Assembly: GCA_905250025.1 (NCBI GenBank)
Contig: CAJNOJ010000030.1
Location: forward strand, 248,001 to 312,000
DNA: 64,000 bases
Source of the DNA: Adineta ricciae
Taxonomy: Eukaryota > Rotifera > Eurotatoria > Adinetida > Adinetidae
Direction: 5' to 3'
Shown: piece by piece, positions 2,717 to 61,300 of the stretch
How the letters are laid out: every line of letters starts with the position of its first letter
How positions within the stretch are numbered: position 1 is the stretch's first letter
Made by a program: the position numbers and the translations under genes
Notes under the pieces: generated by a model
Seen by the model: only the letters and a program-made list of their open reading frames with translations
What the model was told of the DNA's origin: nothing
Databases searched by the model: none

Positions 2717-4984
2717 TTAAACTCGTCCAATGGATCCTGATGTTTTCGTCCATTGTTGATATTTTTTGTTCGCTATGTCAATCAGATCTTCCATGTGACC
2801 GGCCAACTAAAAATGAAATTCGATTGTATAGTTTTAGTTCATTTCCATTGCTGAATGACTTACATGAAAGTCCGTCAGAAGATCGGTTGAGACTTTTTCT
2901 TTGAAAGTATTCACTTGCGTGTCGCGAAAACGTTCAATTGTCTCATGAACACGATGAATCTAATTGAACAACCGATGGAGAGTGTTTCGAAAAGATTCTT
3001 TCTATCAACGTACTTTTTCTTCGATTGCAGGTGAGCTCGGTGGAAATGATGACCAAAAATGACGAAGAAGTTCACTCAGTGATATATAGATCGTCTGCAT
3101 CTCTTCTTGAATAGTCTGCGGAACGATTTCTAAACATTAATCATGAACTTTTGTTGAATTCGAGTGAAATTCTTACGCGACAATGTCTGTGCTGTAGTTC
3201 CGTGCATCAGAGCCCCGCCAGGTGTTAGGTCTTTGACAATTCGATGCGCTAGATGTGAGTTTAAACTCTAAAATAATCGATAAATATCCAATTTCGACGA
3301 GAAAGCAACGAACTAATTCGGTATTTGCACTCCAGTTGTTCATTTCTTGTTTGAAACCTTTCACATTTATTGGAACTTGTGCAGTGGAAGTTTTTTGTGA
3401 CCGATCAGTTGTCGGGGCCCGAAGATACCGTTCTGGATTGACTAATCTTAATGCTTGATTTTCGTCGGGTTGTTCTGTTCGTAAATCTTCTAGATCATCA
3501 TCGGGTTTAAACTAAATGAGAAAACACAAAATCAAAGATTCGATTCATGCTTGATATGTTCTTAAGCGTCCTACCCTCTTCGCAACATCGTCATCATCAC
3601 CGTCTTCTTCCGCGGGCTCTGCGCGACTTGCTGCAGATGACTCGTTATTGACTTCTGTGCCAAGCGTACTTTTTAAAATCATTGTAGAATGAAAATTGAA
3701 CCGTTTAATGAGATTTTTATTCAAATCATTTTTCCCCGAAGTATCCTCAGCGTGTTCATTAACACCATAACCAATCTGTATGAAAATAGAAGAGTAACAT
3801 CCAGCTACAGAAGAACGCGGACTTACTTCGCTTGTTTCATTCGTTTCTGGAGCAATAACTGCCATAGCTTTTCGACTAGCTCGTTCAGCTTCATGAAGCA
3901 TCTCTATTTCACAAAAACAATGAGGAGTGTTTTCGAAACACGAAATCAACTGTCTTACTTTCATCATCCCGCTTCACACAATCATTGAAAATATCACGTG
4001 AATGTGATGGATTCAGTCGATCCATAGTAAAATAATGCGATTGGAAAAACGTGCGCCAAAAATCAGCTTCAGTCATCTTACGCGTATGCACATTTTGTTC
4101 ATATTTCTCTCGAACTAGTTCCGATTGAACTCATCAAGAGCATTTCTAATATATTCAAGAGACATACTTGCTGGATAAGTACGAAAAATTGACATGACTG
4201 TGTCGGTATTGAGTTTATAGATAATACCACCGTTGTCACCCGATTCCGGACGAATATTTGACTAAAGCAAAAGAAGCCGAACTAGAACTGAATTTAGCTC
4301 GGGCGGAATAACCTACTAAGAAGGCACCGGACACACCAGTATCTTGTTTTTTTGTACTTTCAGTTAATTTATCGAACTAGAATAACGATATGTTTGTGAT
4401 CGTTGAACTTTTTTCGATTTCTATTCTTACATCAACATATTTATTCCAAAAATCATCGGCTGGCACTAAGCCACTTATGACTAGATCTTTGTACAATTGA
4501 TAAACCGTTTTATTTTCATTTAAAATTCTAAATAGAACAAAGAATTAGCTAATTGGAGATTTATCAAGAAAAATTGGTTTTACTTCGTTTTGATTTCCAG
4601 AGCTTGATCCATCATTGATCTAAATTTTGGTAGAAGTAGTTTGAGTAACTCCGAAACATCATCACGATCCTTTTTCTGAGCATCGAGTCCGTTTGGATTG
4701 CAAAAATGGAATGTTGTCATTGTTTCATTATAACAAACAATTTGTAGACGGATTTTTGACTTCTCATCCGATGAGATTCGCTGCGCTGAACAGAACCAAT
4801 GTAAATGAAAGTACCAGACCAAAATTCACTTACATTTTATATCACAATAATCGAACGATAGTGTTATGTCACCTTTATGTTTCGGCATCCAACCCATTCG
4901 TTCACTCATCATATACAAAGTACCCTCGACCTTTTTACTCTTAACATGATTCACTTTCAGTCGAACGTCTTCTCCATTCGCCAT
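2717..4984 (-). CDS. GTF2H1: TFIIH core subunit p62 (GTF2H1/TFB1)
   Basis: p62 is a structural subunit of TFIIH, acting in RNA polymerase II initiation and nucleotide excision repair in the nucleus. The start at 4984 reads MANGEDVRLKVNHVKSKKVE and opens the N-terminal PH domain, whose later part (TTFHFCNPNGLDAQKKDRDD, LLKLLLPKFRS) lies at 4580-4780. A BSD-domain signature follows at 3950-4090 (KMTEADFWRTFFQSHYFTMD), close to vertebrate p62. The C-terminus (YQQWTKTSGSIGRV, stop 2717-2719) aligns with the p62 helical tail. Numerous short introns. The middle contains an acidic low-complexity run (EPAEEDGDDDD, about 3600). It is convergent with DDX11, the stops being about 100 bases apart, so 3' UTRs probably overlap. 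p62 contacts XPD within TFIIH, but its lying beside an XPD-family helicase may be chance. Confidence 0.92.
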
Positions 4985-38050: not shown

Positions 38051-41000
38051 TCAAACAAATCGCGATATAAACTCTTTTTCAATGCTAGAATTTGTTCGAG
38101 TTTGTTTCGGAATTGATACTAATGGTAGTGATTGTCGGTGAGATGTGTTGAAGAAAATTGATCTTGCTCGTTTTTTGTCAGAAGATTTGTTTTTAGGTGA
38201 TATTGGAGGTAATTTGATAGGCTAAATGAGACAAAAAAAGACGAAGTTCGTATCCCGTGCCGATGCGAACATTACTTTCGCCACCGGCTTAGGTTGATTT
38301 GCCGACGACGATATCGATTCGTCAGTGTGAACGACGGTAATTTTGTACCGGCGACGTTCAACCGGACGTGGTTGTTTATCATCAACTAGTGAATTAGTTA
38401 AGTGTCTAACCGATTTGGATGAGATCCTAGTTGAGCTTGTTTGACAATGAACACTTATTTTATGCAAAAGGACTCCAGTGGATTGATTTTGTGAGAATGA
38501 CCGTATTGAAGATGCATGATTGGATAGCAGAGGAAGAGTATCATGACTTGTCACACTTGGTTGTTCGGATGTTATTGGTGTACCGCTTACCTCCGAGTCA
38601 TTTGGACTATGGTTACTGTGCATACTATTGAATGATGAACGTAAACCTACTCGAAGAAAATTAATTAATTCAATTCAGTGTGAATTGTTGTTTTACCGAA
38701 ATGAAAACTCTGTTGCTCATGTTCCTCCATATCAGTATCATTTAGTTCGGTTGTTGTCGGTACTGCTGATGGTGATGCAATCGAAATACTGGGATATAAT
38801 CCAGACGAGCGTTGACGCTCTTTTCGTCGTAACTCATGTAGTTTGTCACTCAGCCGTTTGAAAATGTCCTTTCGATTCGATAAGTTCGAATGTAAATAAG
38901 AGTTGAGTACGATGAGAAAGATCTCTTGCCAATGAGTCTTACTCATTGGATGTTTGTCGAGATTTTCTTGAGAAAACAACTCATCTAATGCTTCGAGTAA
39001 GTTCGTCTTCTGTGAACTTGCCATCGTATTCATGATTAGTTCAGTAACCTTGAGTGCATTCGAAAATTTTGATGTTCACATATGAAACAAAAGGATTTTT
39101 ACTGTTTGTGTAGTTGATGAGGAGTCTGCTGATTGATTATCAAATGTAGGTTGATCGAATGGTTCGAGAAAATCATGTTCAAACGTCGCCTGATCCGCAT
39201 CCGGAACTATCGATTCCGATTGATCAGCAAATGACATATTTCGATATTCAGCACGTTTCGCTGGTGTTAGAACTATTCGACGACCCGTGTGACAATAAAC
39301 AATCGATGGTTGATAACCACTTGGGATTTGGGCATGTACTTGAACATTTCTTTGAATACATTCTTCATACCATTCGAGTGTTTCGGGCGAATCACACATC
39401 TGATGTTGGATAAGGGCTGATAATGCACATTAACACTTTAGAGCATTTACCTGTGTTTGATCATTTTCCATATTAACAATTTCCGACTCGTAGGTAATCA
39501 GTGGTTCTATTATATCTTCGTAAGCACGCGATGGAACGATAAAATGCTAGGAAAGAGGACAACGTATATCAATCAACGACGAAGTTCTATTGTAAACTTA
39601 CAGTAGCATCGTTAATTATTGGTATGTGAAACAACTGAGAAACGAATTCGCCCATCGTTTTGATTATACGAGGAGTAGGTAATCGATCGAAAATTGACTC
39701 ACCTCGATAGATTCGATTTGCTATGACTTATCCGAATAGAAAGTATTTTGCTGATAATCTCTAGACATCTATTACTAATTTACTTTGTGATTGATCATCG
39801 GCGTATTGTTCAGGAATGCCAACCACATATGTTTGTGCTTTGTGCTTTACATTAATCATCAACGGTCTTTCTTCTCGTAGTCCTAACTCGGGATAAGATG
39901 CACTTTTGAATAATGTCCAACCTAAGTAAAGATCTTCATCAGTATGAGAATGTACTGTGCGTTGTTGAGCGATGCTTAATTTGTTATCATTTGATTTCAT
40001 TACTGGCTGCTGTAGAGATGCTAGTTCATTCGTCAAATCGGATAGCCAAGCTAGTGTTGTTTGATTGTTGATGAATTTTTCATCTATACCAACAAAGAAT
40101 GTAAACTGAATGTTTAACAATGATAAAAATAAAGATGAGTACCTTTCTTTGCAGATCGTTCGCGAAATTTGTTGATTGCATCGGTGATTGTCGATATATC
40201 TTCGATATGCTCTTTATCAGCGACATGTTCAACAACACGTACTGGTGTTTCAAATGCTTTCTCTCGTTCAATTTGATCCACAGAAATATCTGACTGTGAT
40301 AATGATTTCTCTCGATTTTTTGGCAAATCAGCAGATGTTTGATCTATGTTTTCAATATCTAGTACTTTTTGTTGCGTGGATGTGACTGGCTTAGATGCAT
40401 CTAATCGACGCTGATCCAATTGTTCAATCAATCGAGCAGTAATCCTTCGTGTTCGTTTATAATTATCATCATATTGTATTCTCCAACGCTTTAAAACATC
40501 TTCGAATTCTGCTAGTGAACTATCATATTCGCCAGATAAAATATTTCGCATTTGTTCGTCTGTTAATAACGTATCGAATCTCTTTTCGATTGTTTTATAT
40601 TGAGCATCAAGTAACGTGATTAACTCTTGCTCATTTAATTTCCGTTGGAGGATATATTCAAGCTCATCGAGAACATTAGCGTATTTCACATGAGCCTGTA
40701 AGATATTCCTTTGCAGATGATACTTTTCTTCCAATGTCAGAGAATGTTCGAGAATTGGCTCAATTTTATCATAATGACCAGAAGCTAAATCTCGAATATG
40801 TTCTGATTCAATACGGCCAGTGAATAATCTTAACACTAATTGAAAACGATCTTCAGCAAAGCGAAGCAATTCGTCACGAGATAGTTGGCGATCTAGATCT
40901 GTACAATGAATATATCACTATGATAAGTTTTAGAAACGTACGAAGAATATGTTCAAAGAATTGTAAACGTTTGATTGATAGTTGTCTCAATTCTTCCTCT

Positions 41001-44000
41001 TTTTGCTTATCTAATATGTTGTTGATTGTTTCGCTGATCCGGCCATATTTTCCGAACAAGAGGTCGTTCAATTCTTCTTGTGTTAAAGATCGTTGAAGAA
41101 TTGCAGTGAGTTCACCATAACGATCACCTGCTCGTTTAGTTAATTCTTCAAATGTTAAGTTAGATTCGATTTCAGTCGAAGAATATGTAGTAGGCTGTGT
41201 TGATATGAAACCAAAAATTGAAAAATTATCTTCAGAGTCCAATGTATGTAGTCGATCGCTTCCTTTTGAATTCAACACCAGATTCTTCCTCAGTTCATTT
41301 TCCTAAGGCTCTGAAGTAGTATTAGCGATATTCAAATTTGTATTACCTGATCTTGTGTTGGTGTTAGATTATTCTCGAAATCATCAGTTGCTGCATGGGT
41401 CAACTGGCCATCAGTAAGAGTAGATCGTGGTGGCCCAGATGCTTTATATGCCTGTCGCTCAGCAGGAGTCTAAGAGAAGATATAGAAACAGTCATTTTTA
41501 TAGTGCTTATTTCTCATCAGTATGAAAAGGAAGAGTACCAGTTGTCTGCCGAGTTCTTGCTCAATATCACTGAAATGACCAATGAGGATATCACGAATTT
41601 CGTTTTCTGTTAAGTGTCGTTGCAATTCGCTAGTAAGAGTGACAAATCGATCGTCATACAATGATTTTATTGTTTCTCTTGGTATTGATTTTTCAAGTTT
41701 CTTTTCCAGTTCAACAACATCGCCATTTACAAGCATTTCTATCTCTTCTTTTGTTAATGAGTGAGCCAGATCTGTTTGTAGTCGTTCAAGATTTTCAACG
41801 AAACTTGTTTTCTGTGTATTCTGTGCCAGGTAAAGAACTGGCGTAGTTATCGGAGAAGATTCTTCGATCGAACTTTGGAATTCTCTTATCTTCTGGATAA
41901 TTGAATAATCATTATGGACTAAACGTTTCTTTTCATCAAGAGTTAGCGGACGACCGAGTTGGTCTTCGATAACTTTTATCGACGGAGTAATCAAATGCAT
42001 GATTTCATATTGATCGATTAGCTCGGCCCGTTTTCTTAGTACCTATATGTAAGAATGGAGTTACAAGTTTGTTCAAGCTAATGCTAAGTTGTTCTACTTC
42101 TTCTAATTGTTCATAGCTCGGGTTTATATTTTGCTGTTTCAAACTTTCCCAAACGTTTTTCGAAGAAATAGAAAGAATGCCACGATAAGGTAGAAACATT
42201 AAATCTTCCTGTTCTGTATATTCATCGTTGGTCAGAGAACGATGAAACAGCTCTTTTTCGAAATATTCGATGCATGAATTTGCCTGAAATAGCTGTCGGT
42301 ATTCTAGTTCAGTTAGAGGACGAGCCATCACGCGCTCGAGCGATGCGAAACGATTCATGAATATGACGCGGAAGTCATTCACTGTTAACTGAAGGTTTGT
42401 CAGCTGCTCAAATTGTGGGATGTTTTCGAAGACAATAGCTGTATATTCTTCTAAATTCATTGGACCTATATGAAAAGACGAAAAACATATTCTTTCTCTT
42501 TCATTTGAAAATCAAAGTAATATACGATTCAATCTATTATTTTCGATATGCTGTTGCCAAAGATGTAACATTTGAATCCGTTCATTGATTCTACTGAGTC
42601 TATGTTGTATATTGTCTTCGATCAATTGTTTTGTCTTATTAATGTCTGCGAATGATTGATCAAATAAGTTGTTCGAATGCCCGTTGAAAACGTTAAGCAC
42701 ATCGACTTCATCAATTGGTCGACCAAGTAAGCGTTTGATATCTTCTGCTACTGGTTTGGTTTGAAGTTCATTAATAATATCACATATTGACGAGTTGCCT
42801 AATAAAGAATATAGGGAGAACAAAGTAGTGGTAATAATAAATTACCTTTTGTAGGCTCTAATCCATATTCTTTCTTGAGCTCCAGTAACTGAGTCTTGAG
42901 ACGCTCGCTGAGCTCCTGTAAAATCTGTTGTCGATCTACTATTGATTCAGGATAAAGAGCTATTGGATCTGACTGTTTAGTTTGATCTACCGTAACTATT
43001 TAAAAACAAAGAAATACGATTGACGTTTCTATATCAGTATTTAAATGATTTCTTGCAAATACCATTGCTTTCCGGTTGCACATTGCCATTTGAAATAGTA
43101 TTCTCACTTGTAGCCTGGCGTTCGATGGATCTTAGGGAACTATCGAGTTGTGAAATCGATGGTGCTCGGTAATAAGATAAAGTCTTCAGTTGTCCTGCTA
43201 TCGTTTGAACGTTTTTAATCATTTGTAGTGGAGATTGACTTTTATATGCATCAAGAATACGTTCGGAGAGGTGACCAAAGCGTAATGCATCTAGAAGAAG
43301 GAATTGAATTGATACGTTTAGCTTCTCGACGAACACAACGTAATACGTTACCAATCAATTTTGGTGTAAGTAGATGCCTTTGGAGTTTCTGAATTTGCGG
43401 AAGCGTGAGTTGGTGTACTTGTATACTTTCAATAATCGCTTTATTTGAATCATCAACTGTATCTGCAGCCGTTGCCTCGTGCTTGATTGTTTGGTATGTA
43501 TCTTCTGTTACCGTATTCAGTTTGAGTAGATCAAGTATAAACGACGGAATAGTTTCTGTTTTAGTTGATATACTATCGATGGAACGTAAACTAACTTCAT
43601 TAATAAGATTGAGTATATTCTCAAGCTGGTTGTGCTTTACTAATGAATCTGACACAACCTTCACTGCAGCAGTTTGAGCTTCTAAGCTTGATTGCAGTCG
43701 TGCATACATTGTTGCTAGTTCATTATGAAATGAAATAGATAGCCGATTTCGCACAGCGGGTATGTTGCTAACAGACTCATTCACTTCAGCGGATAGACGA
43801 AGTGTAGTAGTTGAACTAAGCAGAATACTGAATTGTTCATCAGTGAGAATAAATTGAGAACGTATATCGGACAAAGATTCGGTGTATTCAAGTTCATCGA
43901 ATGAAATGTTACTGCCCTGCCATAATGTAACAAGTTGTTCTGGCTCGAAACGCAAATCTGTCGTCTATTAAAAAGAAACGGTGATTAAACGAAAAATTAT

Positions 44001-45179
44001 ATGTAATGTAGACGAACATCACTAAGGTCCGTTGAGCAGATCGTTAACTGATCAAGCGAGATATTAGCTTGCTGAATAAGAGAGAACACTTGATGAGCAT
44101 TCAAATAAATACGTGGTAGAGTGTGATTGATGACGTTTTGCAATGATATCAGTTGATCGTGTTGACTAATTAAACTACAAAGTTGTGCAATAGTTAATAC
44201 CTTTGTTTTTTCGATATTTTGATGTGATAGAATTTGTGTTGGAGTTATTTGATTTTCTAATGTAATTTGCAGTAATTGATAATACGACAATTGTAGAAGT
44301 TTTTCAGACGGCGACAATGTTCGAAGATGATCCAATGACATGTCTATTATCGAAAAAAGCAGATCTGTGAGATTCAATGAAGATAGGTCTTTACTTTGCA
44401 TTCGAGCTAATTGTTCGATTTGCTGATGCATAAGTGTCAGAGAAGATTGGTTCAATAAGTACAAGGCTATGAACTGACTGGCGGAAAGTCCATCAGTTGT
44501 CCGATTCTGACTAACACGACGATTGTGAAATAAATAGGCTAGTTGTGGTTCATTCAAACGAAACTGTCGAGATTGCGTCTGCTGTTCTTTCTTCATATTT
44601 CGTTCTATGATTGATAACTGTTCCATATTCAAATGATTCTTATTGATTAAATGTGTCAATTGCACTGGTGAGAGACAGAATTTTAATTTTGGATCATTGA
44701 GTGATACTGGTGATAACGTTGGTAAAAACGGTTTATGTTTAAGATCTAGTTCGATTTTCTGTAGGCTGCATAATTCAATCAATTGGTGAAGATTTAACAC
44801 GAGTGGTAATCGTAACTCTCTATTTGTTGATGTATTTACCAGGTCATTTTGATAGATCAAACACTGAATTTGATTCTCCGTCAAGAGAATATTCTCATAT
44901 GATGCTTCGTTGAAATTGTCTGTAAGAGAAAACGATAAAAATTAGCTGCTTTCCTGTACTCGGACTTAATGTCTCTATGATTATTTGTGTAATGAGCGAT
45001 AGAAACTCAACAACTCATAATAAGCTCAAAATATATATACTGTATTGATGCATACCATCAGTAAATTGAATGCTATCTTCGATTGCAATTTGTACCAACT
45101 GCTCTTCGGTCAACTGAAAACGTTCTGGTATTTCTATTGTTCTCATCAATCTCTCTAGGTATAGACCAGGTGCGTCCAT
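38051..45179 (-). CDS. Very large unrecognised protein with tandem 24-residue helical repeats (giant gene, downstream part)
   Basis: Not a family I recognise. About 20 exons read in phase on the minus strand, giving roughly 1,950 residues if it starts at MDAPGLYLERLMRTIEIPER (45179). The N-terminal half has loose LxxxQLxxLI units (LTEEQLVQIAIED, LTENQIQCLIYQN, LSPVQLTHLIN). From about 42,450 to 40,500 they become regular: units begin LT-x-E-E-[IL] and recur every 24 residues, e.g. LTKEEIEMLVNGDVVELE, IPRETIKSLYDDRFVTLT, LTENEIRDILIGHFSDIE back to back (41,520-41,790). A frame stop at 39761 lies inside a plausible intron (39721-39775); an 18-base exon (39703-39720) then links to LFHIPIINDATHF and on to ISRFV at 38051. 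A separate gene starting at 39655 is the alternative. Upstream, phase also permits fusion with the gene at 46805 across a 1.6 kb intron. No signal peptide or membrane span. Confidence 0.6.
40490..42460 (-). repeat. Protein-level tandem repeats, 24-residue period
   Basis: At least ten units with first residues LTVNDF, LTLDEK, LTKEEI, IPRETI, LTENEI, LTFEEL, LTQEEL, LSRDEL, IESEHI, LNEQEL and LTDEQM. Several neighbours are exactly 24 residues apart. Pattern: [LI]-[TSN]-x-E-x-[ILM]-x-x-[LI]-x4-[YF]-x-x-[LI]-x3-[LF], suggesting one amphipathic helix plus turn and second helix per unit. DNA copies are diverged, so the array is old. Confidence 0.7.
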
Positions 45180-45206
45180 AGTTAGATTTTGTTTCAGACA
45201 TATTCT

Positions 45207-46806
45207 ATAAAAAAAAATCAAGTATTTCTTTTCATTTTGACAATATTTAACAAAGGTATATTAGGTTTTACATTTTATATCAGTATATCAAAACTATTAT
45301 GAGCGAACAAAAAATTATAAAGCTTTATAGACACAATATAAAATAGCAACAAGAAAATAAATCAGTGGTACGTTCATCATAATCGAAACACCTCAGAGTT
45401 TGATCATTTTTATTATTACTAGTAAGAGTAATCCCGTTGACCATGTTATTTCTATATAGAAGTAATTGAGCATGAGCTATGTATTGCTGTTTGTAAAGGA
45501 TACCGATAAGAATGCAAACGTGAAATATAAGAATTTAATACACGCTCTTGGGGGATAGCTAATTTTATGTCATTTGCTGTGCAAAATTAATTGGTGCGCA
45601 TCTATTCTTACGGCGTCATAGGCATCTGTCACCAGCTGTGAATTAGTAAAGACACTCTTGTTCTTGTATTGAAAATGGATGTAGATGTGTTTGTATATAA
45701 AATAACGAGCTAGAAATACGAGTGGATCATCGCTTACAATGTTACCATTCGAATTCTAGGAAAACTGACGAAGTGACAGCATGCATTCCAACAATAATAG
45801 AGCCGAGTAGTACTGCACACTGCAATAACTAAGTGGTGCCGATAGGTATTCTTTAGTGAGTATTCATCCATACGACTTGTAGCCACGTGCTGCACAAAAT
45901 ATGGAATGTGAAGTACTCAATTTGTTGATGTATAGGATATTGCTAAAATTTGGATGGTCAGCTTCGATATTATTTTGTCTACTATGTTTATCAAATACCA
46001 AACAAATATAATTACGTAATGACGATTGCATATTTTGTTTGCATTAAACCACACAACTGACAGTATATGTATACAATAATTTTATGTTGAAATAGAGTTT
46101 TGGCATACTTTACCAAAACTGTTTCTCTTGAAGTAGCTAAATAATTTTAACTTGCTTGCGACTGGCTAAAATTTTTCTTAATACGGTATTATACCAAAAT
46201 AAATTCTTTTCTTGCAATACAGTTAAAATCTTATGTACATGGACTGTACGGCGTAAAGTTTTTGTGGGTTAAAATGCATCGCCCACAGACTAGTCCGTTT
46301 AGTTCAAATTTGTGTTGTGTTGAAATATGATGTTATCAATGATGGTGTATTATAATATTCTGTCATTTTGATTAACTAATTATGTTCCTTGTTAACATGA
46401 TTGGTACAAATAAAAATACGAATGTCAGACTCAGTATATTTACGTATAGGTCACAGTATATCTCTCATGTTGTGTAGTAGAATGCATTCAAACGATACAA
46501 TCAAATAGAACTAGAACTCTTTTATATCGTAGTATTAGTCATACGAAGTGGGTAAATTTTGAAATCTGTTGCAATGTGAAATAGTATCGAACCATACGAT
46601 TGTCAATGAACAAATAGATCGATTTTAGTACAAATCATTCCACTCTTATTATAAAAGACGAATAGTTTGTGTTTACTGACGCCATCTTCTGATGACTTTA
46701 TCGATTAGTATCGGGGTGAGCGAGCGAAGAAAGGGAAATTAAAACATTTCAACTTTGTATACAAAGTCACAGCAAACTCTAGCATCAGCAGCTGTAGAAA
46801 TAACTT
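45207..46806. other. 1.6 kb spacer: long intron or intergenic gap within the giant locus
   Basis: On the minus strand it begins with a strong donor (CA|GTAAGT, which automatically creates a TAA) and ends with TTTTTTTTATAG. The flanking phases match (GAA CA + A ATA TGT), so it can be one intron. All other introns in this locus are about 50-70 bases, so it may instead separate two genes. It contains a YY1-like AAGATGGCG on the minus strand (46680-46688). No coding sequence recognised. Confidence 0.55.
46680..46688 (-). promoter_or_regulatory. YY1-like AAGATGGCG element in the spacer of the giant locus
   Basis: Reads AAGATGGCGTC on the minus strand, 117 bases past the end of the upstream coding part. 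If functional it would favour a separate promoter for the repeat-protein gene. Confidence 0.25.
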
Positions 46807-49800
46807 ACTGTTCAAGTTGAAAACTTGTCAATTTCAGTGGCATTCGACCTGGTAGAGTCGCAAGAACAACTAGTTGAGCTATACTGAGGCCCATTTCTAC
46901 GGAATGATCTCTGTTAGGATCGTCTACTGATTCTTGCAACAGATGCTTTGATTCCATTGTTTCATTGATTATTGGCATAGTTTGCCGTTGCTGATCCATC
47001 ATATTTGTTGACACTGCAAATGAGATAGAATGTCTCTACTATCCTACTAATTATTGGCCTTACGTATTTCTTCGGATTTCAAAGATTTCTTTTCTTCCGT
47101 TTTCTTTCTGACTATTCTCGTCATCATTTCTGGGTCACCGTCTGCTGCTGTTAGCAGCGTTTCTAGCGTGTGTATAAAACGAATTGTTTGCTTTGATTTT
47201 TGTGACGAACCATGCTGGTTCAAGCGACCTTTTAGTATGCTCACGGCAAGTGGTATGTACTTCTTCGGATCATTCGAGCGTAGTTTGGCAATTTTTAGTA
47301 CATCATCCAGAAGGCGGACCTTTTGTTAACGAATAGTGAATGACTCAGACTCGTACGAGAATGATACTCACTCCACGTTGGCCGCTGTATTTGAAAAATT
47401 CAGTCAAGCGATCATTGATTGTTTTCTTATTTTGTAATTTTCGTTCGCCAATATTGTTCTCTCGATCAAATTTTTCGACTGCTTCAACAGCATCTTGAAC
47501 CAGTCGAGCAACATCTTCTTCCGATAATCCATCATAGTAATCGTGTGTACTTTGCGTCGCAACGCTGTTTTCGACAGTCCCGTACTTTTTTATCATGTCG
47601 ACTAGCATCATTCGTACTTCCACGGGAAGATTGTTCATTTTTGCAGTTTTGTCATCTTCATTGAATTGATACGAATCTTCTTGTACATTGTCTTTACCAG
47701 TAGGCGATTTCTGTGCATTCCAACGTCGTTTATATTGAGCTAAGATCCAGGGTGATGGATTTAATACACGAAGATGTCGACGTTCTATTAAATCGTTAAC
47801 ACTCAGTGGTATGTAAGATTTCTCGACTGATTTAATATTCTATGAAATACAGTTAAGACAGCAATTGACTTATAGACATAGCGATAGAAATATTTACACG
47901 TTTCGGAATATCAAGTAAAACGAGATCTTTCAAAGCTTCAATGTTACCATTCAGTTGTTCTTCGTTTCCAAGATGAAATCGTTTGAATGCATGATCAGAA
48001 AAGAATTTTGGTGCTTGGTTCAAATCGATAACATGTAAAAGACATCTGGTATCCGGAAGTGCTTGAGAAACATTCTTCTCAATAAAATCTCCTAGATCAT
48101 GGATAATATCGATTTTATGAAAGTAGGATACTAATAGATATTCGAATTTTGTATAATCAGCTAAATAATCATCACTCATTTGATCAAATAGATCGTTTGT
48201 CAGTAAACAAATAGTTTTGATTAGAATATCTATTTAACAAAAGGACAAAATCCTATACCGTAGAAGTGTAAACGTTGTCATTACTAGTAGAAAACCAAAC
48301 GCACGGATTATAACCGATGGGTGGTGATGGCTGATATTCAGTGGAGTTCAGTTCTTGAAGTAGATTCTCTGTCGTGTATTTCTTTAGAACATGCATCAAA
48401 GCGATGTTTTCTAGCAATTGAGAATTGATTAGTTGAAGACGATGAAATAAGTTTTCAAGCGACTTTTTCAGAAATTCTTCGATAAAAATAGTTTCGATAT
48501 GTTGCTTCGTCTCCGAATCATTACAGTAATCGACACACCATTTCAAATGGAAATATGTTTGAAAGACACTATCTTCACTGTAACAAAAAAAACTGTTAGT
48601 TTACTCAGAGAGAAACCAATTTCTTGTTCAACTCACATCAGATCAAGAAGCAAAGCCGTACAAAATTCTAAAGCATGACTAGTAATTGGTGTACCTTTTC
48701 AAGAAGAATCACATATTTTTGTTGAAAATGAAATGAAAATTCGTTCTACCATTTTGTAGAAATGTTTTCGTAATATAATTGAATATTCTCCAATCAACGT
48801 TTGATAGATAGGTAGATATACGATTCATTATACATTGAGAGTTAGAATTGTGTAAATTTCTGCTTCTGTTGTCGGAAGTAAATATATCATCATCATCGTT
48901 TACAGTACTGTCCTCTTCACTCAACGTTATGTCGCTATTTTCAATGGATATCACTCCAGAACTAATTGATCTGTCATCAGCAACCGAAACATCATCTTCA
49001 TAGTTCATAGTATTCGATGCTGTTGTGTATTGTTGTGGATTGCGAAGTAAATGCTGACGAGCATTGATAATTGCTGAAGCAACTTCATGGGCACGATCTT
49101 TTTTCATATGAAGAAAGTTAATGAAACTGTGAGCTAAATCTAATGATGCTCTAGGAAGATATCTCATTTATTTTTAGCCATATTTCGCTTTCAGTTACAT
49201 ACATAAGCTGAGCCGGCTTCGATTCATACATTCTATGCACTTGCGTCATTACGGACGATAATGAACCATAGAGTGAAGATAGATAATCTTCACCATCATA
49301 ATACTGTTCACTGTCTTCGAAGTCGTCGTCATCGAAATCTTCTTTTCAACAAGGTGCATTTAAATGTTTATTCTATGCGATTCAAGGTGATCTACCTTTG
49401 TCTTGAAATCCTTCATTTTGAATGTCTATTTCCTCTATTGATGCTTCACTTTCCTCGAGTTTATTATATTCACTGTACTTATCGTTGATCTACATAAACA
49501 AGACATCAGTCGAATATCACCGTACCAAGTCGAGTAGTCACTTTATGATCAATAGGACCTTCTTCGTTTATCGAAGAAATCATCGGCAGTTCATCATAGA
49601 TAAGTTTGTTACTCACTAGACGATAGAAAAGTATAATAAACCCGAACACAATCTTTTGTATAATGAGATCAAATATCGGTGATGAAGAATTCCATCCGAT
49701 ATTGATTTCTAGCACTGACGTTTCGAAAATAAACCAGTTCTTACTCAGTAAACGTTCAGTTGAGTCAGCGATCGAATATTTCTTGATTGCATTAAAATTG

Positions 49801-52455
49801 GTATCAGCTGACGGTGGCAACTGTTGATGATTACTCTTGTCACGTAATAAGAATAGGTTCTTCAAAAACGAACATCTCATATTTCCGATGTTCGTTGAGG
49901 CTTTTGGTGTACGTTGATAACGTGAATGTCTTTTCCGTTTTACTTTGTGTTTACCGTATTCAGCGGGTGATCGAGATGCTCTTCGTTTTATTCTTTGTTG
50001 ATACATCTGTAAGATCACCAGTAGTCTTTTTTATAAATGAAATGTAACTGAAGTACTTTTTCGGCTTGTGCTGATGTGTTGTAGCTTTTTGTGTTTATTG
50101 AAGCTGTATCCAATGTTTCCAAACTATGATTGTCTGTTTCAAAATCATGTGATGTCAACTTCTTTTTTCTTTGTTCTTGATTGCATGCGACGGGGAACGA
50201 CGGATGTGCTTGGTTTTCTTTTGGTGAGATTTTACTATGTGAACTGTTGCCAAGTAGAATCATGCTACTGTCTTGCTGCGCATCAACTAGATGTTTTCGT
50301 TGTTGTCGTCGTGTGACAATTGTCAACGAATCGGTACTCATTGGTAATCGATCGAAACTGCTCGGTCCACCGTCAATTTCTTCATGAACGATAACACCAC
50401 TCTCATGACGACTGAAACCCAGAATGATAAGACACTGTGGAAAAAGTCGTCTTACTGAGTATCTTTCAATTTAATCGGACCAGTATGAGAATTAGACCGA
50501 GCAATGAAAATCTCTCGATGATGATCGTGTATCATGACTTCTTTTACTAGAGAATGAGTGTCTACAATAGAAAGAATTCGGTATATATTCATAATGAAAA
50601 ATATAACGTACCTTTCTTCATCGGTGGTCCAATCAGAAGAATTTTAGCTGTTTCTTCAGCCTTCTGAAAAAATCTTTTTCTGTAATTGAGTAACTTAATT
50701 TCATAAATCATACCAGACGATGGTCTATTTGAAGACGCAAACGTATTCGTATATCATCCATTATAGTTTGCATCTGTTCACTGCTGATTGATTGACTGCC
50801 ATTGGCATCCAGTTTATCCAACAGGTCATCAAAATGATATTGAATCGCAATTCGCATAGATTCTTCTCGTGAGTAAGCAGAGAAGAAATTGTTGACATAT
50901 GCATGAAACATTTTCCGTAGGCTATCAATAGTATCACGTTCCATGTTCGATGCCAGTTGTGAATATGTATCATGATGCTGTGGAGAGTATCGTTTCGCGA
51001 AAAGTTCTTCGAGTTTATGTTGAACAGAGTGAAGAATATGTCTTTCGTTAATTCCTTGTAAAAAGTAAAGTTCTTGTTGGAAGTCAGCATCGAAAAGTCT
51101 TGGCTCTTGCTCTTGTGTGATTTCGAATGTTAGATCTTCAAGATTTTCATCATCGGTTAGTAAATGAACAATCACGCGATGTTTGTCGGTTAATGATTCT
51201 AATTCGATCTGTACACGGCGTATTTCATCGATTGAAGAATCGTGATGTGTTTGAAAATATTCGTGAACATGTTCAAGAACAATTTGCTCAAGTGTTGATC
51301 GCTACAGAATAAAAATTGATATATAAATCGATTTCTGTGGACAACTTGTGCATAAATGACTTCGAATGAGAACACCTACTTGGCTAGTGTGAACCGTGTT
51401 GTCTGGTGGATCTGTATCCACTTGTGCAAATTTGACATGCGAATGGTGTACCGACGCTAGTAGTAAAATCAACTTATCATTATTGATTCGAATGACATGA
51501 CCTTCATAAAGATCGCCAAAGGTTGATGTTAAATCGAACATTTTAATCTCATGTTTTGATAGTTCATTCTAAACGTATGGCGAAAAGATTACGGACGATT
51601 AAAGAAAGAAGAACAAATACTGGATGTAGAATAAAATGGCCAATAATTTCGATCTTTAGTTCAGTATTCAATGCTGTTTTGATAAAATCTTTCAATATAT
51701 GTTCACGGAGATGTTGTTTCAACTAAATAGATGAATTTGAAGAAGTTCAATTAGAAGTTCATTGTCAAAGGCTGTTACGAGATACTTCCGGTGAAAGAAG
51801 GTTTTGAATGTAGCTTCGACTTTTGATCCTTCGAAGCAAGCTGCTTGATGAAAATCGATATGAAGAGCATCCTGTGGTCGACGTGACATTGGAATCGGTC
51901 GATTAGGATACGGTGTTCTATCTAATCGAAACAAATCTTCTTTCTCAGCATGCGATCGTACGTATCGTGTAAGCTCCTGTCGTCGTAAATATTCTTCATC
52001 CAGCGATTGACTTCTACTAGTGACATTCACTCGAGCGATTTTTGTGTTTAGTGATTGCTTTTTTTTCCTATTCCATCGATGTTCTCGTTTGATTGATTCT
52101 TTCCAAGTTGTATGTCCTAATCCAAAATGTTCGAAATCAATAAAGATGCGAAATCCTTTTTCATTGAAAAGTCTCTCCGGAGGATATTTGTAGGTTAATG
52201 TTGTGTAGTGACATCCATTTTCACATGGATATTTACAATCGATTTTAGTCGATTGTGTAACATGAGATTTTCGTTGTGTGTGATGATCAAGTGATTTCCA
52301 AAATACAGGTGGATGAATTTTCTCTAATCTAGCATCTAATCGAACGAAGTCATAAATAGAATTTGATGGTAAAGATCTATACTTGACTGCCAGAACTTCC
52401 AAATCGGATCACGCTGATAACGAGGTATGCAAAGTTTTTCGATCCGAGGATTCAT
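46805..52455 (-). CDS. Very large unrecognised protein (giant gene, upstream part)
   Basis: About 15 exons in consistent phase, roughly 1,600 residues, no homologue I can name. The first coding segment (MNPRIEKLCIPRYQRDPIWK, from 52455) is in a different frame from the next (LAVKYRSLPSNSIYDFVRLD, from about 52400) with no room for an intron, suggesting a one-base deletion or a sequencing error. Then come a Cys/Arg-rich basic region (CKYPCENGCHYTTLTYKYPP, REHRWNRKKKQ), FDLTSTFGDLYEGHVIRI, an alpha-helical region (51300-50700), disordered Ser/Gln/Lys stretches, an acidic run (FDDDDFEDSE, 49320) and helical segments to SIAQLVVLATLPGRMPLKL. It ends LEQ-TAA at 46805, where the stop is also a strong splice donor. 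No signal peptide; probably intracellular. It may form one protein with the repeat region downstream. Confidence 0.55.
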
Positions 52456-54366: not shown

Positions 54367-57300
54367 TTATGTCGATGCACCCTAAAAATAGATGAATGCT
54401 ACATGAAGTTAATCGACGTACGCAATATACTTTTTTTCTTTTCTCAATCAATGAATTCAAACGTTCAATTAATTCCTTGCTTTGCTTTTCGATCTCATTT
54501 CCTGCTGAAGCTAGAACAGAACACAACAACAACTTCTCGAACAAGCAAATCAATCATTCGGTACGAACGTGTTTGATAAGTGTTATAAAGATCAATGCAA
54601 CTCAAAGTAACATCCCGACAAGCATTGCCAAAATGTAAATCTGAAGTACTATTCGCAATAACTTTTCCATGCAGAACTATTTCAACCATCGAATTCGATA
54701 AGGCAATGCATTCGTTCAAGAATGATAACGTCATAGCTAAAAGATAAATGTTATTACAAATGAAAGAGTCAATGTATTTCACTCGCTTTCATCGGAATCA
54801 TTTTGTTTCTTCCAAAGATCAAGCATTTTCTTTACACTTCCATTCGCTAATTGTATTTTCGTTTGAAGATAATCTGACGAATGTTTTCCATTGAATAATT
54901 CCAGATTCTTCGTCCGTTCGATTCCGTCATGCATTTGATTGATACAATATGTTAATATCGTATCTAGAGAACGAATAAGGAATGAATTGCTTTAGTTTTC
55001 TCAGATTACGACGTACGCTTATACTGCCGTTTGAGATTATTAACGAGTTTTTCGTGATTAGCTTGGATAAGCTTTTGTTTATCGGTTGTATCCAAATATC
55101 TTTGTGCCCATTCTCGTATCGTCTCTTCGAGATCGATGATTTTCAGTTCGAGAATTTCTTTATCGTGAATTAGATCAATAAGATTTTCTTCGTGTTCCTA
55201 AAATTAGTTTCATACCAATGAAAGTTCTGAAAGATGAGATGAAATGTGAATGTTTTACTCGATTTTTGTAAAATAAATCTTGTCGTGCTCCTTCCGTTTG
55301 ATTTAATTTTTGTTCGAATGTTGACTTATCCTGATTAAGGCGTGTTTTATCACTTTCTAGTTGTTTGAAACGTTCTTCTACATTCTGAAATACGTCTGAC
55401 ATGTAGAATCCTTTTGAAATTCTTTGATGCTTCTACTTGTTTAGCATTTTCAATCTGTTGCAGACGTTCCTTCGCACTTATTGTCATCGACTGATAATCG
55501 TTACGTTCGGTTGTCAAGATTTGAATTCGATCTTGTAATTCCTACGTGATAAATGATATTTCTGCCGTAAGATTTGCTCACTGTTCACAAAGACTATTTG
55601 CCTACATTGTTTGTTTGCCGTAATTGTACTATTTCATTGTTCAATTTCTCGTAATTCTGGTTGAATTCTTCTTCTTTTTTCTAAAAAGCGGATGAATTAA
55701 TGGTTAAGATCGAAATAAATCGTACTTTATATTCGTCTTTTAATTGCTCATGTTGTTGATTCAGATCTGTTAATTGCTTTTTATTTTCTCCTTCCTAAAT
55801 CAAAAGAATTATTCGAGGCAAATAGCGAATTTCGTATTCATACACGTCGTAGGACAACCACATGTTCCTCACGTAATTTATTGTATGTTTCCAGTAGTTT
55901 GTTGAACTTTTCATTGGAATTCTCTTAAGAAACGAATCAATGAAGAGCAGAAGTCAAACACAGGTACATACTGTCCATAGCTTGTATTTCATCGATACGC
56001 TGTCTATTATCCAATTGTTGACGAAGTTGTTCTTCAAGCTGTGAACGATGCTAAAGACGAAAAGAAAAGTTCAATATAGGTAAAGGAACGTTTTCAAATA
56101 GGATACATTTTTTTCAGCGAGTAATTCCGCATCTTTGGCAGCAATCGTTCGATGCAAGTCATCAGTTTCTGAACGATTTTGTTTCAGCATTGCATCGTAC
56201 TAAGTTCCTATGTGCAGAAACACTTCTTTTGAAGATTATGTCATCTATACCTGCATGACTCGTTGTTCCAAATCCGATATTTCCTTGGAACTATTAGGAT
56301 ACATGTAAACGACAGTAATTCATCGAAGAGACATACCGATTGAACATGGAATCTTCACTGACAGTCGATTTCAGAGCAACCTTGTTCTAAAGAATACACA
56401 GATTGTGATCTGTTTACACTAGTGAATATATTACATCATCGGATGTGTCAATCAAAATGTCGTCTGTTGTTGATGTAGTTACAATCGGTACTGGACTTGT
56501 ATAGTTTTTCATGTCATCTTTTATATTGAAATTCGGTGGATTCTTTGAATAAAAAGAAGCATCAATAGGAAAGTCGAAAGTCAAGTCGAACTGTACTTCA
56601 GGTAAAATAGGAACTTTGATAAGATTTCGAAAATACTGTAAAGTTGATGTTTGACTATAAAACCGCTTTAATCTTCGGAAATGATCTGATAATTTCACTC
56701 GATGGCTTTGTAATGTATCTCCAGCCAAACCTATATTTTCCTCAATCGTGAGTCAGTTGAATGACAGAGCAATTTTCTCGTTACCTTCGTGAAGTTTGAA
56801 CAGCACCTTAACAATGTAATCGTAGAGAAGACTCGAATCTTGTACGCAAGCAATTAACGGATTTAGACGACATTGTCCTGTAGCGGTCATTGAATTTGTA
56901 CGTGATTGATCAAGTGATGAAAATATGACTTGAACAAGATTTAATATCTCTTCCATATACTCAAGTAACTCGAGACACAGTTGAGAATATAAGCTGTAAT
57001 TATCATTAAGCAAACGGCGAACGTCGTTATTTTCATCGATGGTTAAATTTCCTGTAAATTTTGGATTACGCACGTGAAATTTCAGTTTTGACACTAATAA
57101 ATGACAATAACGATAGGATAGCAGACCATAACCGTGTTGAACACCACTCTTGAACATCCAATTGATGTATACATGTCAATCTGTAATACGATGAACTTAC
57201 CCAGTATTTGCATAGTTGATCGAAATACGGTGTTAGTATAATACAATCGTGAATAACCTAAAGGGAGTAACGTATCGACATAGACTATTTTATAGATTAT

Positions 57301-57779
57301 TTCTTTCAAATGACTTACATGCCTATGTCCATCTTTTAACAGACGATGGATAACATAACAGAATTTCCAACAAGTAATCGGATGGGAATCAATTTGAAGT
57401 CGGATGACCATTGACCAAAATAATCGTGAACCATCGAGTCGGAACGTCCCAATAATAAGATCTAAAGTCAATAAATCCTTATTTCACCTATCATTTCTCC
57501 ATTGCCCATTTTCTTACTCCGAATGTGCTTCTCTTTAGCCGGTACTTCGACATTGTTGATAGCCTTTGTCGTACTTTGCCACTAGATCAAAGTGCACTGT
57601 TTACCGAGAAGAAAATGGGAAATTCTGTCGTTACGTACCTGATCCCATTCAAATTTATCTCGATTATCCTGTTCAGTTAATTTCCTTCGTATAGGAATAT
57701 TCAGCACTAACTGATTCAAATTGACTAAAGTTGAACGGTTTTTGTTGACACTCATCTTCAACAGAATATTAAAACTCAT
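54367..57779 (-). CDS. HIP1/HIP1R/Sla2-type endocytic adaptor lacking the THATCH actin-binding domain
   Basis: Clathrin adaptor family linking PIP2 membranes, clathrin and actin. The N-terminal ANTH domain is well conserved: TTKAINNVEVPAKEKHIR, LFWSMVIRLQ, CWKFCYVIHRLLKDGHRH, TATGQCRLNPLIACVQDSSL and LYDYIVKVLFKLHEG, each matching vertebrate HIP1. The linker has DILIDTSDD. Then coiled coil from about 56350 to 55100 in many short exons. The final part (LNECIALSNSMVEIVLHGKV, SDLHFGNACRDVTLSCIDLY) corresponds to the region before the I/LWEQ module and ends EKRKKGAST at 54367; no THATCH core follows before the TIKI gene. The junctions around 54560 and 54780 do not join cleanly with standard donors, so the 3' end may be decayed. 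Start 57779 (MSFNILLKMSVNKN); 57755 is an in-frame alternative. Confidence 0.82.
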
Positions 57780-58329
57780 GAAGGAAAAAGAATTTCAAAT
57801 GACAATAGCTAGCAACAGATGGTTTCCATCTGGTTGAAAATAAACCATCGTCTGTCTTGCACATCATCGATGGTGCATTCAAGAAAAACTTCCGACGAAA
57901 TAAATCTAGTAGGTGAATCGAACGTTTCATCTTCAACAGCAAAAAAATAACACCGGAAACGCTCAAGTGGTTAGTAACAGAAAGGGAATTATTAAGTTAA
58001 ATATCATTATGTTTGCTGGAAACTGTCAAAAACGGTAGATGGCGTTCATTACCGAATAAACTTTAATAATATCAATCGATCTTTCAATCAAATGTGTCAA
58101 AATGTTTTCTCTTTCATTTTCTCGATATATGTGAAACACGTACATTAAGATGTCTGTCTCAATCAACATCATCTGTTAGTTTCCTTCGCAAGTGTTAGTT
58201 CATGATTGATATATTTCTTTCATAGACTAGAAAAACAACAGAACCGGGACAAGAAAGCTAGAAGACTAACACATACATCTGACATTTAGAAAAGACAAAT
58301 CAAGAATTCGAACGATTGCCAGCGAGTTT
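57780..58329. other. Intergenic region between HIP1-like and GPCR genes
   Basis: Upstream region of the HIP1-like gene and 3' region of the GPCR. A TAGATGGCG string (58036-58044) resembles the YY1-like elements elsewhere. A minus-strand frame at 57769-57966 is unconvincing. Confidence 0.4.
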
Positions 58330-61300
58330 TTAACGTAGATCGGTGTGTCCTTTACTAATTGCTGAAAATTTGCGCCCAGCGGACATTGTCATTGAATGAC
58401 CAGCAGATGGACTGAACATTTGAGATGATGGACGTGGATGAATAGTTTTTCTACATGTTAGAATATTGACGAACGTTTGCCGAAATGTTCGACTAAAAAT
58501 TGTATAAATAATTGGATTGGCACAGGATGAGCAATAGCCAAGCCATGTGGCCACTGCCGCTAAAAGTGGATGAATATCCGAAACGAAGCAAGAGATAAGA
58601 TTAATAACAAAAAACGGTGTCCATAAAATAACAAAGATAGAAAAAATAATAAGTAATACACGCATTGCTTTACGTTCATTGGTTGCACACTTTTTCACAG
58701 AACTTTTAAATCGTTGACGTTTTTTTCGCTGACGATTTGTTATTGTATTTGCCGTACCTGCTATAGCAGATTGAAGTTGAGCGGAGTGATAGGTGAGACT
58801 AGATGTGCACGACGATGTGTCGTCGGTGTCTAGTGAAACCATTTGGAAGCTAACTTGGGAGACGATATCTTTCAGGCGGGGATGAGCGCGACGTATAGTT
58901 CCTTGAAGGGATGATGAACCTAAGGAAGATGACGTACTTGGCCGATTATATCGAGAAGAACGAGACGCTAAGATTGATGATGTTAAAGAATAAATACTTG
59001 CACGTTTACCAACAGCGAAGTGTTGCACAGATGGTACGTGATCGTCGACAAGTAAATGTTGCTGCGGTTGGAATGTGGTATTTGGTGTTGATGTCTGACC
59101 ATACAGTTGTTCGATACGAGGGAAATGTTTTTTAAGACGAGTTAAGGGTGGAAAATTTTGCTTTGGACCATTTAATATTGGAGTATTTTCAGTGATATTG
59201 ATAGCTGATGCACACCGTAGAGGAATTTGTGTTTGATGTAGATTATTCAGAGTAGTTGACGATGCTGTTGTGATGATCCAATCTTTAATACGTTGACACG
59301 TTACATCAATGGTCGAATGATGCTTTTTGCATTCCGAGTGATCATTCGACAGGCTAGTATGAGGACTGTCATGTGTAACGAGAAGATTTGGTACAGGTAA
59401 ATTCGATGTCGATGTTTTCCTCTCATTGGTATCAAATATTGGTAATCGAATATCAGCACTATTTCTATACGGAAGAGGAAATATTCTTCTTTTATTTCGC
59501 AAGTTAATGAACTTACGATCGTCGACGTCGTTTGGGGTTAACAGTGAGAAAAGACGTGGGAATAACAATCGGTTGATTGACACTTGCTTCCGCAAGTAAT
59601 TGAGCTATAGTTGGTGTTTCTTTATCTGTTCGATCATAAGGCGCCGGAACTGAAAGTGAAGCTCGTTTACTAGAAGGATCAGCATTGGATGCAGATGCTG
59701 ATAATTGAGCAGTTAGATTAGCTAATTCTTCACTGATTTTCGCCGAATTACGACGGATTTGCAAGAGTGTATGTACAGACGAACTCCGCCGTCGATTTTT
59801 ACGCGCATTTTTCGCATCCAAGAATGGCGTACACGAATGCGAACGTCGTGTAGGTGTTTGTAAGTTATTCGGAGTACTCACATTTAGATGTTGATTTGAC
59901 ATTTGATCAGCTACAAAGAAAAACAGAATGCATTTTCTAGTTTTTCGATGCCTATTTTAAGATCTATGCTAATAGAGCTTATTCCTTTCTCACTCAGACC
60001 ATATCGGAAATGTCTGTCCCGGAACGATTTTGTTAATAGATTTCTAATGTTTTCTTCTATTCTTACGAGATTTCTCTCGACGCATATGGATTCGCAACGA
60101 TGGAGCACGTTGCGGATATTCATCTAGACGTTGATGAGAAATAAATATTGATTTTTTTGGTTGTTCAGCCATCAATAGCGACGATGAACGTTTTCGTTGA
60201 TAATTTACTGGTAATTCCTTTTCTACTGCTACCGATCCATGATTTGAATTCGTCGTTGACAAAGACGGTTTGTCGTCTGGTATCTCGACTGCATTCACTG
60301 CTCGTTTCCATTTGACAGCCATGGCAGCGAGATTAACTACAGCACGAATCTTTTTTCGTCGTTTAGTACGCTCTCGTTTGGTCGTATGAGCTTGCTGCAA
60401 CGCTGTCATTGTCAATGCATATGTTACAATCATGATAATCAATGGAATGAAAAAAGCAACAAATGAACCATAGATTTTGAATGTTCGATGAGTAGGAAAG
60501 CACGCGCGTGTCTTTTCATTATACACATTCGATGAATCGATTAGAGCCAAAATAAATAATGGCAGACATATTGCAAATGATATTATCCAAATTGTAATGA
60601 TCTTATATGTCACTAAACTCCGACGTTTATTTCGTCCGTATTTCAACGGATATCGTAGTGTTTGATAGCGATTCAATGACATAACACTAAGCAACAAGAA
60701 ATCAGATTTCATTAATAACAAATGACTTACAAAATCAAGTTTGTTGGTTACCTCATATGCCATATCGATGATGTACAACAGCAAACATCAAACGTCAACC
60801 AAATATTACATGTTAAAGAGTCAAATGGAAAATATCCGATAAATTCCACAGCGACAGCAATTGGCATAACAAGACATGCAACGAGACAGTCAGTGATTGC
60901 AAGTGACGTTAAAAAATAATTAGTTGTATTTTGTAAATGTCTTTCACGTAGAACAGCTATACAAACAAGACTATTACCACCGACAGTGAATATAATAACT
61001 AGAAGAGAAGCATAACATAAAAAAGAGAGTTATTTTCTTTGATTTGATTAGATTAGATCTCTGCAAATGATCGGACATTCCTTTGAATGAAAGTTACAAA
61101 TCTTATGTGAACTTTCCGGGATGGGAGAGTTAGTTTAATAACTAATATGATGTTCATATCAATCTTTTCCTTTATACAATAATCATGATTATTTCAAAAA
61201 GCAGACATGGCCTTCAGGCTTTGAAGATATTTACGTATGACATTTCTTATCCTTTTCCATTCTTATTATTATGAAGACATTTGCTATTTTTTCTCGAAAA

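What the first reader, a model, noticed from the sequence alone, without database searches (positions are those of the whole stretch)
40490..42460. Undescribed tandem 24-residue helical repeat in a giant protein
The translated exons contain at least ten units starting [LI][TSN]xE, with several consecutive units exactly 24 residues long (LTKEEI, IPRETI, LTENEI; LTFEEL, LTQEEL; LNEQEL, LTDEQM). Each has a conserved Tyr/Phe near position 14 and Leu/Ile at positions 1, 6, 9, 17 and 21, as for a two-helix solenoid unit. I know of no named repeat (HEAT, TPR, ankyrin, pumilio, annexin) with this period and signature. DNA copies are diverged, so the repeat is maintained at protein level.
Basis: partly seen in the sequence, partly recalled or inferred. 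Interest (0 to 1): 0.78.

Follow-up and report, generated by a model that had tools for sequence, protein, structure and literature searches.

The report
Rotifer giant protein with helical repeats
A very large protein, found so far only in bdelloid rotifers, contains an old chain of 24-amino-acid helix-pair repeats that fits no catalogued repeat family well and probably serves as a scaffold for binding other molecules.

Summary
A deposited 3,604-aa Adineta ricciae protein maps to this gene (3,526 of 3,604 residues exact). Residues 2335-2917 (window 42460-40495) hold 12 units, consensus L[TN]xEELxxLxxGxFxxIExxLxRx, with six steps of exactly 24 residues; shuffles do not reproduce this. Register and spacers recur in other bdelloid orthologues. 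Orthologous units are 61% identical, units within one protein 21%, so units are old and individually constrained. AlphaFold models are all-helical; 8 of 11 modelled units show two helices, 3 of 11 one long helix; overall shape is not established. No Pfam family passes its cut-off in the seven orthologues scanned. The unit resembles 24-residue leucine-rich repeats by sequence, but only 2 of 50 units carry the defining motif. Best reading: a bdelloid-specific alpha-hairpin repeat family used as a scaffold; the scaffold role is inferred.

The parts
38051..52333 (-). Gene of the giant protein, from P0001 residue 26 to the stop; about 40 exons in my model of this stretch; residues 1-25 and 674-722 of P0001 were not placed
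43818..46888 (-). Upstream array, P0001 1552-1960: 14-15 units of L[TSN]xxQLxxL at irregular steps (31 residues frequent)
   Evidence: 15 pattern matches against a shuffle mean of 1.9, maximum 7
42389..42460 (-). 24-residue unit 1 (P0001 2335-2358)
42317..42388 (-). 24-residue unit 2 (2359-2382)
42236..42316 (-). Length-variant unit, 27 residues (2383-2409), called by eye
   Evidence: two helices in the Rotaria Silwood2 model
41875..41946 (-). 24-residue unit 3 (2488-2511), isolated
41686..41757 (-). 24-residue unit 4 (2551-2574)
41614..41685 (-). 24-residue unit 5 (2575-2598)
41542..41613 (-). 24-residue unit 6 (2599-2622); an exon ends just after it
41087..41158 (-). 24-residue unit 7 (2713-2736); the 75 residues present before it in A. 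steineri are missing in both A. ricciae proteins
41015..41086 (-). 24-residue unit 8 (2737-2760)
40885..41014 (-). Length-variant unit, 27 residues (2761-2787), interrupted by an intron, called by eye
40813..40884 (-). 24-residue unit 9 (2788-2811)
40741..40812 (-). 24-residue unit 10 (2812-2835)
40639..40740 (-). Length-variant unit, 34 residues (2836-2869), called by eye
40567..40638 (-). 24-residue unit 11 (2870-2893)
40495..40566 (-). 24-residue unit 12 (2894-2917)

Best explanation
Residues 2335-2917 of a 3,604-residue bdelloid-specific protein are a chain of alpha-hairpins. Each unit is about 24 residues: helix A starts after a Thr/Ser/Asn cap at position 2 and runs to about position 10, a turn sits near Gly/Asp 12, and helix B runs from about 14 to 22. 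Residues 1, 6, 9, 10, 14, 17 and 21 form the core that lets hairpins pack on each other; units of 23, 27 and 34 residues punctuate the later half. Shown: repetition, register, conservation, helical character by prediction, and in-frame absence of 75 and 44 residues in two species. Inferred: that the hairpins stack into a rod or superhelix, and that this is a binding scaffold whose specificity comes from positions that differ between units but are kept between orthologues.
For: Repetition beyond shuffles. The 24-residue steps and the 47, 51 and 58 spacers recur: all three in P0008, P0009 and P0004, the last two in P0001, P0002 and P0003. Strongest hydrophobic moment at 110 degrees in both halves of the average unit (1.15 and 1.28; at 160-180 degrees 0.20-0.22 and 0.20-0.70). 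Both AlphaFold2 models list helices only; 8 of 11 units have two helices at about positions 3-10 and 15-21. Orthologous units 61% identical (114 pairs), units of one protein 21% (369 pairs), in five orthologues. Positions 8, 14, 7, 5 and 12 show the largest excess of between-species over within-protein identity.
Against: The models are weak: mean pLDDT 60.2 (the other four models 41-45) and 55.7, pTM 0.48 and 0.26; 3 of 11 units are drawn as one long helix. Foldseek and VIA-align found no convincing match. By sequence the profile finds leucine-rich repeats, which are beta-containing. Nothing tested bears on binding or location in the cell. About half of the units fail strict cross-validation on their own.
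Confidence: 0.62

Rival explanations
1. The units are diverged typical-class (24-residue) leucine-rich repeats that kept the L..G.F..L positions and lost the beta-strand segment, or still fold as leucine-rich repeats.
For: Array and unit-pair profiles find LRRTM in the PDB at E 2e-6, 1.2e-9 and 3.2e-4, and VLRs at 0.005-0.01, always in one phase. In the whole-array profile the best single stretch has i-Evalue 0.0028. 0 of 300 and 0 of 300 column-permuted decoys reach the score (the target was chosen after the fact). hhalign probability 37%, with 1 of 100 decoys reaching its score.
Against: With the unit-pair profile none of the 8 listed chains has a stretch that passes 0.02 on its own (best printed i-Evalue 0.064). 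LxxLxLxxNxL in phase: 2 of 50 units, Asn at its place in 6 of 50. No leucine-rich-repeat family was listed at E <= 1 for the seven orthologues scanned. Both models are all-helical, and the average unit lacks the alternation of a strand.
Confidence: 0.1
2. The region is not a packed solenoid but a set of separate helical hairpins, or a flexible or coiled-coil rod, in which the 24-residue period only spaces interaction sites.
For: Low pTM; 3 of 11 units modelled as one continuous helix and a long helix after the last unit; acidic and charged composition (71 K+R, 107 D+E in 596 residues); gaps of 63 and more between some units.
Against: Conserved hydrophobic positions at 1, 6, 9, 14, 17 and 21 across units suit packing; the later spacers are themselves unit-like; fixed spacing across genera.
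Confidence: 0.22
3. The repeat is an artefact of gene modelling or of chance composition.
For: Several units are weak; 27 of 50 pass the strict cross-validated threshold.
Against: Shuffles, separate deposited annotations in several genomes and conserved spacings.
Confidence: 0.02

Closest known systems
Typical-class leucine-rich repeat (LRRTM, VLR)
   Same: 24-residue period; hydrophobics at positions 1, 6, 9, 17, aromatic at 14 and often Gly at 12 in the same phase
   Different: The LxxLxLxxNxL segment is absent in 48 of 50 units; predicted helical rather than strand-containing
DUF7602 (PF24549)
   Same: Best Pfam hit on the units: E 4.6e-4 on one exon; 2 of 19 two-unit pieces, best 1.9e-4
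   Different: 20.5 bits against a cut-off of 27; E 0.014 and 0.006 on the two whole A. ricciae proteins and not listed for the other five orthologues
LRV and other short alpha-solenoid repeats such as DUF4116 (recalled, from no call)
   Same: About 24 residues and helical, as recalled
   Different: Not listed by Pfam at E <= 1 for the orthologues; no direct comparison was made
TAL-effector-type helical repeats (upstream array only)
   Same: The first-helix profile of the upstream array matches 12-13 columns of them in the PDB by summed score
   Different: No stretch passes alone; the upstream steps are irregular, from 14 to 41 residues; not compared further

Membership tests
Leucine-rich repeat | LxxLxLxxNxL in each unit (definition from PMC2946307, abstract and passages) | tested here: not met
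   2 of 50 units in phase, mean 2.14 of 5 positions
Leucine-rich repeat | Short beta strand per unit | tested here: inconclusive
   No strand listed in either AlphaFold2 model, but the models are weak
Leucine-rich repeat | Recognised by a Pfam LRR model | tested here: not met
   None at E <= 1 in seven orthologues
DUF7602 | Score above the curated cut-off of 27 bits | tested here: not met
   20.5 bits at most on window exons; 20.7 in the genome search
HEAT, TPR, ankyrin, pumilio, annexin, LRV | Recognised by the Pfam model of the family | tested here: not met
   None listed at E <= 1 for whole orthologues; one TPR_12 match of 13.3 bits, cut-off 30.1, on a single exon
Alpha-solenoid repeats as a kind | Tandem units each made of two helices | tested here: met
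   Repetition shown; two helices in 8 of 11 modelled units
Alpha-solenoid repeats as a kind | Regular stacking into a superhelix | tested here: inconclusive
EF-hand (the name UniRef gives P0001) | EF-hand match within the repeat units | tested here: not met
   The one EF-hand_1 match is near the N-terminus, outside the array: 11.6 bits, cut-off 25.4

The most novel reading that the evidence does not exclude
The upstream array (about 14 units, L[TSN]xxQLxxL) and the 24-residue array descend from one ancestral hairpin, so that residues 1552-2917 hold a single expanded alpha-repeat region of nearly 1,400 residues: a new repeat superfamily that arose in bdelloids, with a per-unit recognition code at positions 7, 8 and 11-13, evolving by loss of hairpin blocks.
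Probability: 0.3. Interest if true: 0.5.

Novelty: new variant of a known kind. Interest (0 to 1): 0.36.

Why it matters
Short two-helix repeats are informative for protein evolution and useful as building blocks. This one is old (present in Adineta, Rotaria and Didymodactylos), constrained unit by unit, and varies by whole blocks in frame, so it could show how such a chain grows and shrinks. It also marks a large conserved bdelloid gene with no assigned function.

Tried and rejected
DUF7602 as the family: below its cut-off, in A. ricciae only, and other places in the genome score nearly as well (4 places at E <= 1, the best 20.7 and the next 18.8 bits, none over the cut-off).

A second genomic copy: one exon (266-aa frame) searched in the own genome gave only itself. 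The unit profile could not be run there.

Relatives outside bdelloids: the three protein searches listed 5, 2 and 5 proteins, all from named bdelloids except one unnamed JGI protein. They need shared 5-residue words, and two of them scored only the candidates sharing most words. Scans of prokaryote genomes and viral contigs used two short patterns each and confirmed nothing. Distant relatives may be missed.

Three-unit module: units of the first and second kind in each group differ on average, but label permutation gives 2, 6 and 4 of 70 sets (P0008, P0004, P0009), 1 of 35 (P0005) and 6 of 20 twice (P0003, P0001); in P0009 and P0005 the second-kind units are no more alike than unlike kinds, in P0003 and P0001 the first-kind units are not; and the species are not independent. 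Suggestive only.

Papers: searches for DUF7602 (0 papers), I4U23 (0), bdelloid with solenoid (2), Adineta / tandem repeat / 24-residue (48 with two of the three terms, 20 listed), alpha solenoid / 24-residue / repeat / helical hairpin (3) and bdelloid / lineage-specific / orphan gene / repeat protein (36, 10 listed) showed no title on this protein. Two searches for LRV gave nothing useful. Only PMC2946307 was opened (abstract and passages); of the others I saw listings only.
Full report
What was checked. The window is part of a 130-Mb assembly in 1,033 contigs. A simple gene model on the minus strand and a protein search show that the finding lies in a gene whose deposited product in Adineta ricciae, P0001, has 3,604 residues; 3,526 of them map in exact blocks to the window model, so the window is A. 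ricciae or something very near it (inference). Orthologues were listed only from bdelloid rotifers: a second A. ricciae protein (P0002), A. vaga (P0003), A. steineri (P0008), Rotaria socialis (P0009), Rotaria sp. Silwood1 (P0004) and Silwood2 (P0006, partial) and Didymodactylos carnosus (P0005, partial), plus one unnamed JGI protein (P0007).

The repeat. A self-trained 24-position matrix finds 13, 14, 14 and 12 units in P0001, P0003, P0004 and P0005. I dropped the isolated N-terminal ones in P0001 and P0003 (residues 136 and 139) and one in P0005 (1940) before later counts, leaving 50. In P0001 the 12 units lie at 2335-2917, window 42460-40495. Six steps are exactly 24 residues. The consensus is L-[TN]-x-[ED]-[EQ]-[LI]-x-x-[LI]-[AL]-x-[GDEN]-x-[FY]-x-x-[IL]-E-x-x-L-x-[RK]-x. 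Shuffle tests, cross-validation between the two halves of the array (27 of 50 units above the threshold and no other position in the tested stretches) and two orthologues outside the training set speak against chance. No 72-nt DNA repeat remains.

In A. steineri the later part reads, without gaps, as units of 24, 24, 23, 24, 24, 27, 24, 24, 34, 24 and 24 residues (the 23, 27 and 34 were delimited by eye between called units). The distance between the first units of successive groups is 71, 75 and 82 residues in A. steineri, R. socialis and Rotaria sp. Silwood1; A. vaga and A. ricciae show 75 and 82; the partial Didymodactylos protein shows 71, 54 and 82. A three-unit module copied four times is a natural reading, but the similarity test is only suggestive. 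Both A. ricciae proteins lack 75 residues that A. steineri has here, and A. vaga lacks 44; the two Rotaria proteins and Didymodactylos lack none. The 75 are one three-unit group plus a few residues. Loss in Adineta is the simpler reading, since the outer genera have the stretch. In A. ricciae the junction lies inside one exon of my model, so it is a difference of DNA rather than of annotation.

Age and constraint. In five orthologues, units at the same place in different species are 61% identical (114 pairs) and units of one protein 21% (369 pairs). The units therefore diverged before Adineta and Rotaria split, and each is held in place (inference). The excess of between-species over within-protein identity is largest at positions 8, 14, 7, 5 and 12; the exposed ones among them are candidates for binding (inference).

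Fold. The average hydrophobicity of both halves of the unit has its strongest moment at 110 degrees (1.15 and 1.28), against 0.20-0.22 and 0.20-0.70 at 160-180 degrees, as expected of two amphipathic helices. AlphaFold2 models of one A. ricciae exon (250 residues, 5 sequences; pLDDT 60.2, the other four models 41-45; pTM 0.48) and of the Rotaria Silwood2 piece (458 residues, 7 sequences; pLDDT 55.7, pTM 0.26) list helices and no strands, with block pLDDT of about 55-86 in the units. Of the 11 called units in them, 8 have two helices, at about positions 3-10 and 15-21, and 3 are drawn as one helix from 3 to 21. Their overall arrangement should not be used. Foldseek and VIA-align gave no convincing match.

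Resemblance to leucine-rich repeats. Profiles of the array, of unit pairs and of the whole protein find leucine-rich-repeat chains in the PDB: LRRTM with E 2e-6, 1.2e-9 and 3.2e-4, and several VLRs at 0.005-0.01. The phase is constant. Permuting the columns destroys the match (0 of 300 and 0 of 300 decoys), and a profile-profile comparison gives 37% probability, with 1 of 100 decoys reaching its score. This speaks for a real likeness of pattern. Against membership: the low E-values come mainly from summing many short matches (best single stretch i-Evalue 0.0028 for the array profile; none under 0.02 for unit pairs), the target was chosen after the fact, the defining LxxLxLxxNxL (PMC2946307, passages) is met by 2 of 50 units, no LRR family is listed by Pfam for the seven orthologues scanned, and the predicted structure is helical. 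I treat it as a rival with low probability.

Upstream array. P0001 1552 to about 1970 (window from 46888 to about 43818) holds 15 matches of [LIFVM]xxxQ[LIVMF]xx[LIFMA], against a shuffle mean of 1.9 and a maximum of 7 in 1,000; A. vaga has 14, A. steineri 16 and R. socialis 12, each with a shuffle maximum of 7 or 8. Steps are irregular, with 31 frequent. Its first-helix profile resembles that of the 24-residue unit (hhalign probability 49%, score 11.6; 0 of 100 decoys reach it). The units were gathered by a pattern that fixes Gln 5 and hydrophobic positions, which favours this match. In the PDB its profile matches mostly TAL-effector-named chains (29 sequences at E <= 1) by summed score over 10-13 columns, with no stretch passing alone, which I read as a generic capped helix.

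Mechanism. The best-supported reading is a chain of alpha-hairpins in a giant protein, acting as a scaffold that binds partners along its length. Repetition, register, conservation and (by prediction) helical character are shown; stacking and the scaffold role are inferred. No tool result bears on partners or location.

Novelty. It is a new repeat family of a known kind, as far as these libraries show.

Noticed in passing
43818-46888 (-): A second array of 14-15 L[TSN]xxQLxxL units at irregular steps in the same protein, with a first helix like that of the 24-residue unit.
   Followed up: partly
P0001 residues about 760-810: A hydrophobic stretch of P0001 that A. vaga P0003 seems to lack (by eye); it may be a retained intron in the annotation.
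   Followed up: no
P0001 residues 1401-1500 and 3301-3400: The best conserved parts outside the arrays (46% and 48% identical to Didymodactylos), without a Pfam match at cut-off; probably globular domains of unknown kind.
   Followed up: no
56753-60787 (-): Upstream genes that my crude model fused to this one: a rhodopsin-family receptor (7tm_1, E 3.8e-20 and 1.6e-15) and an ANTH-domain protein (E 6.3e-19).
   Followed up: partly
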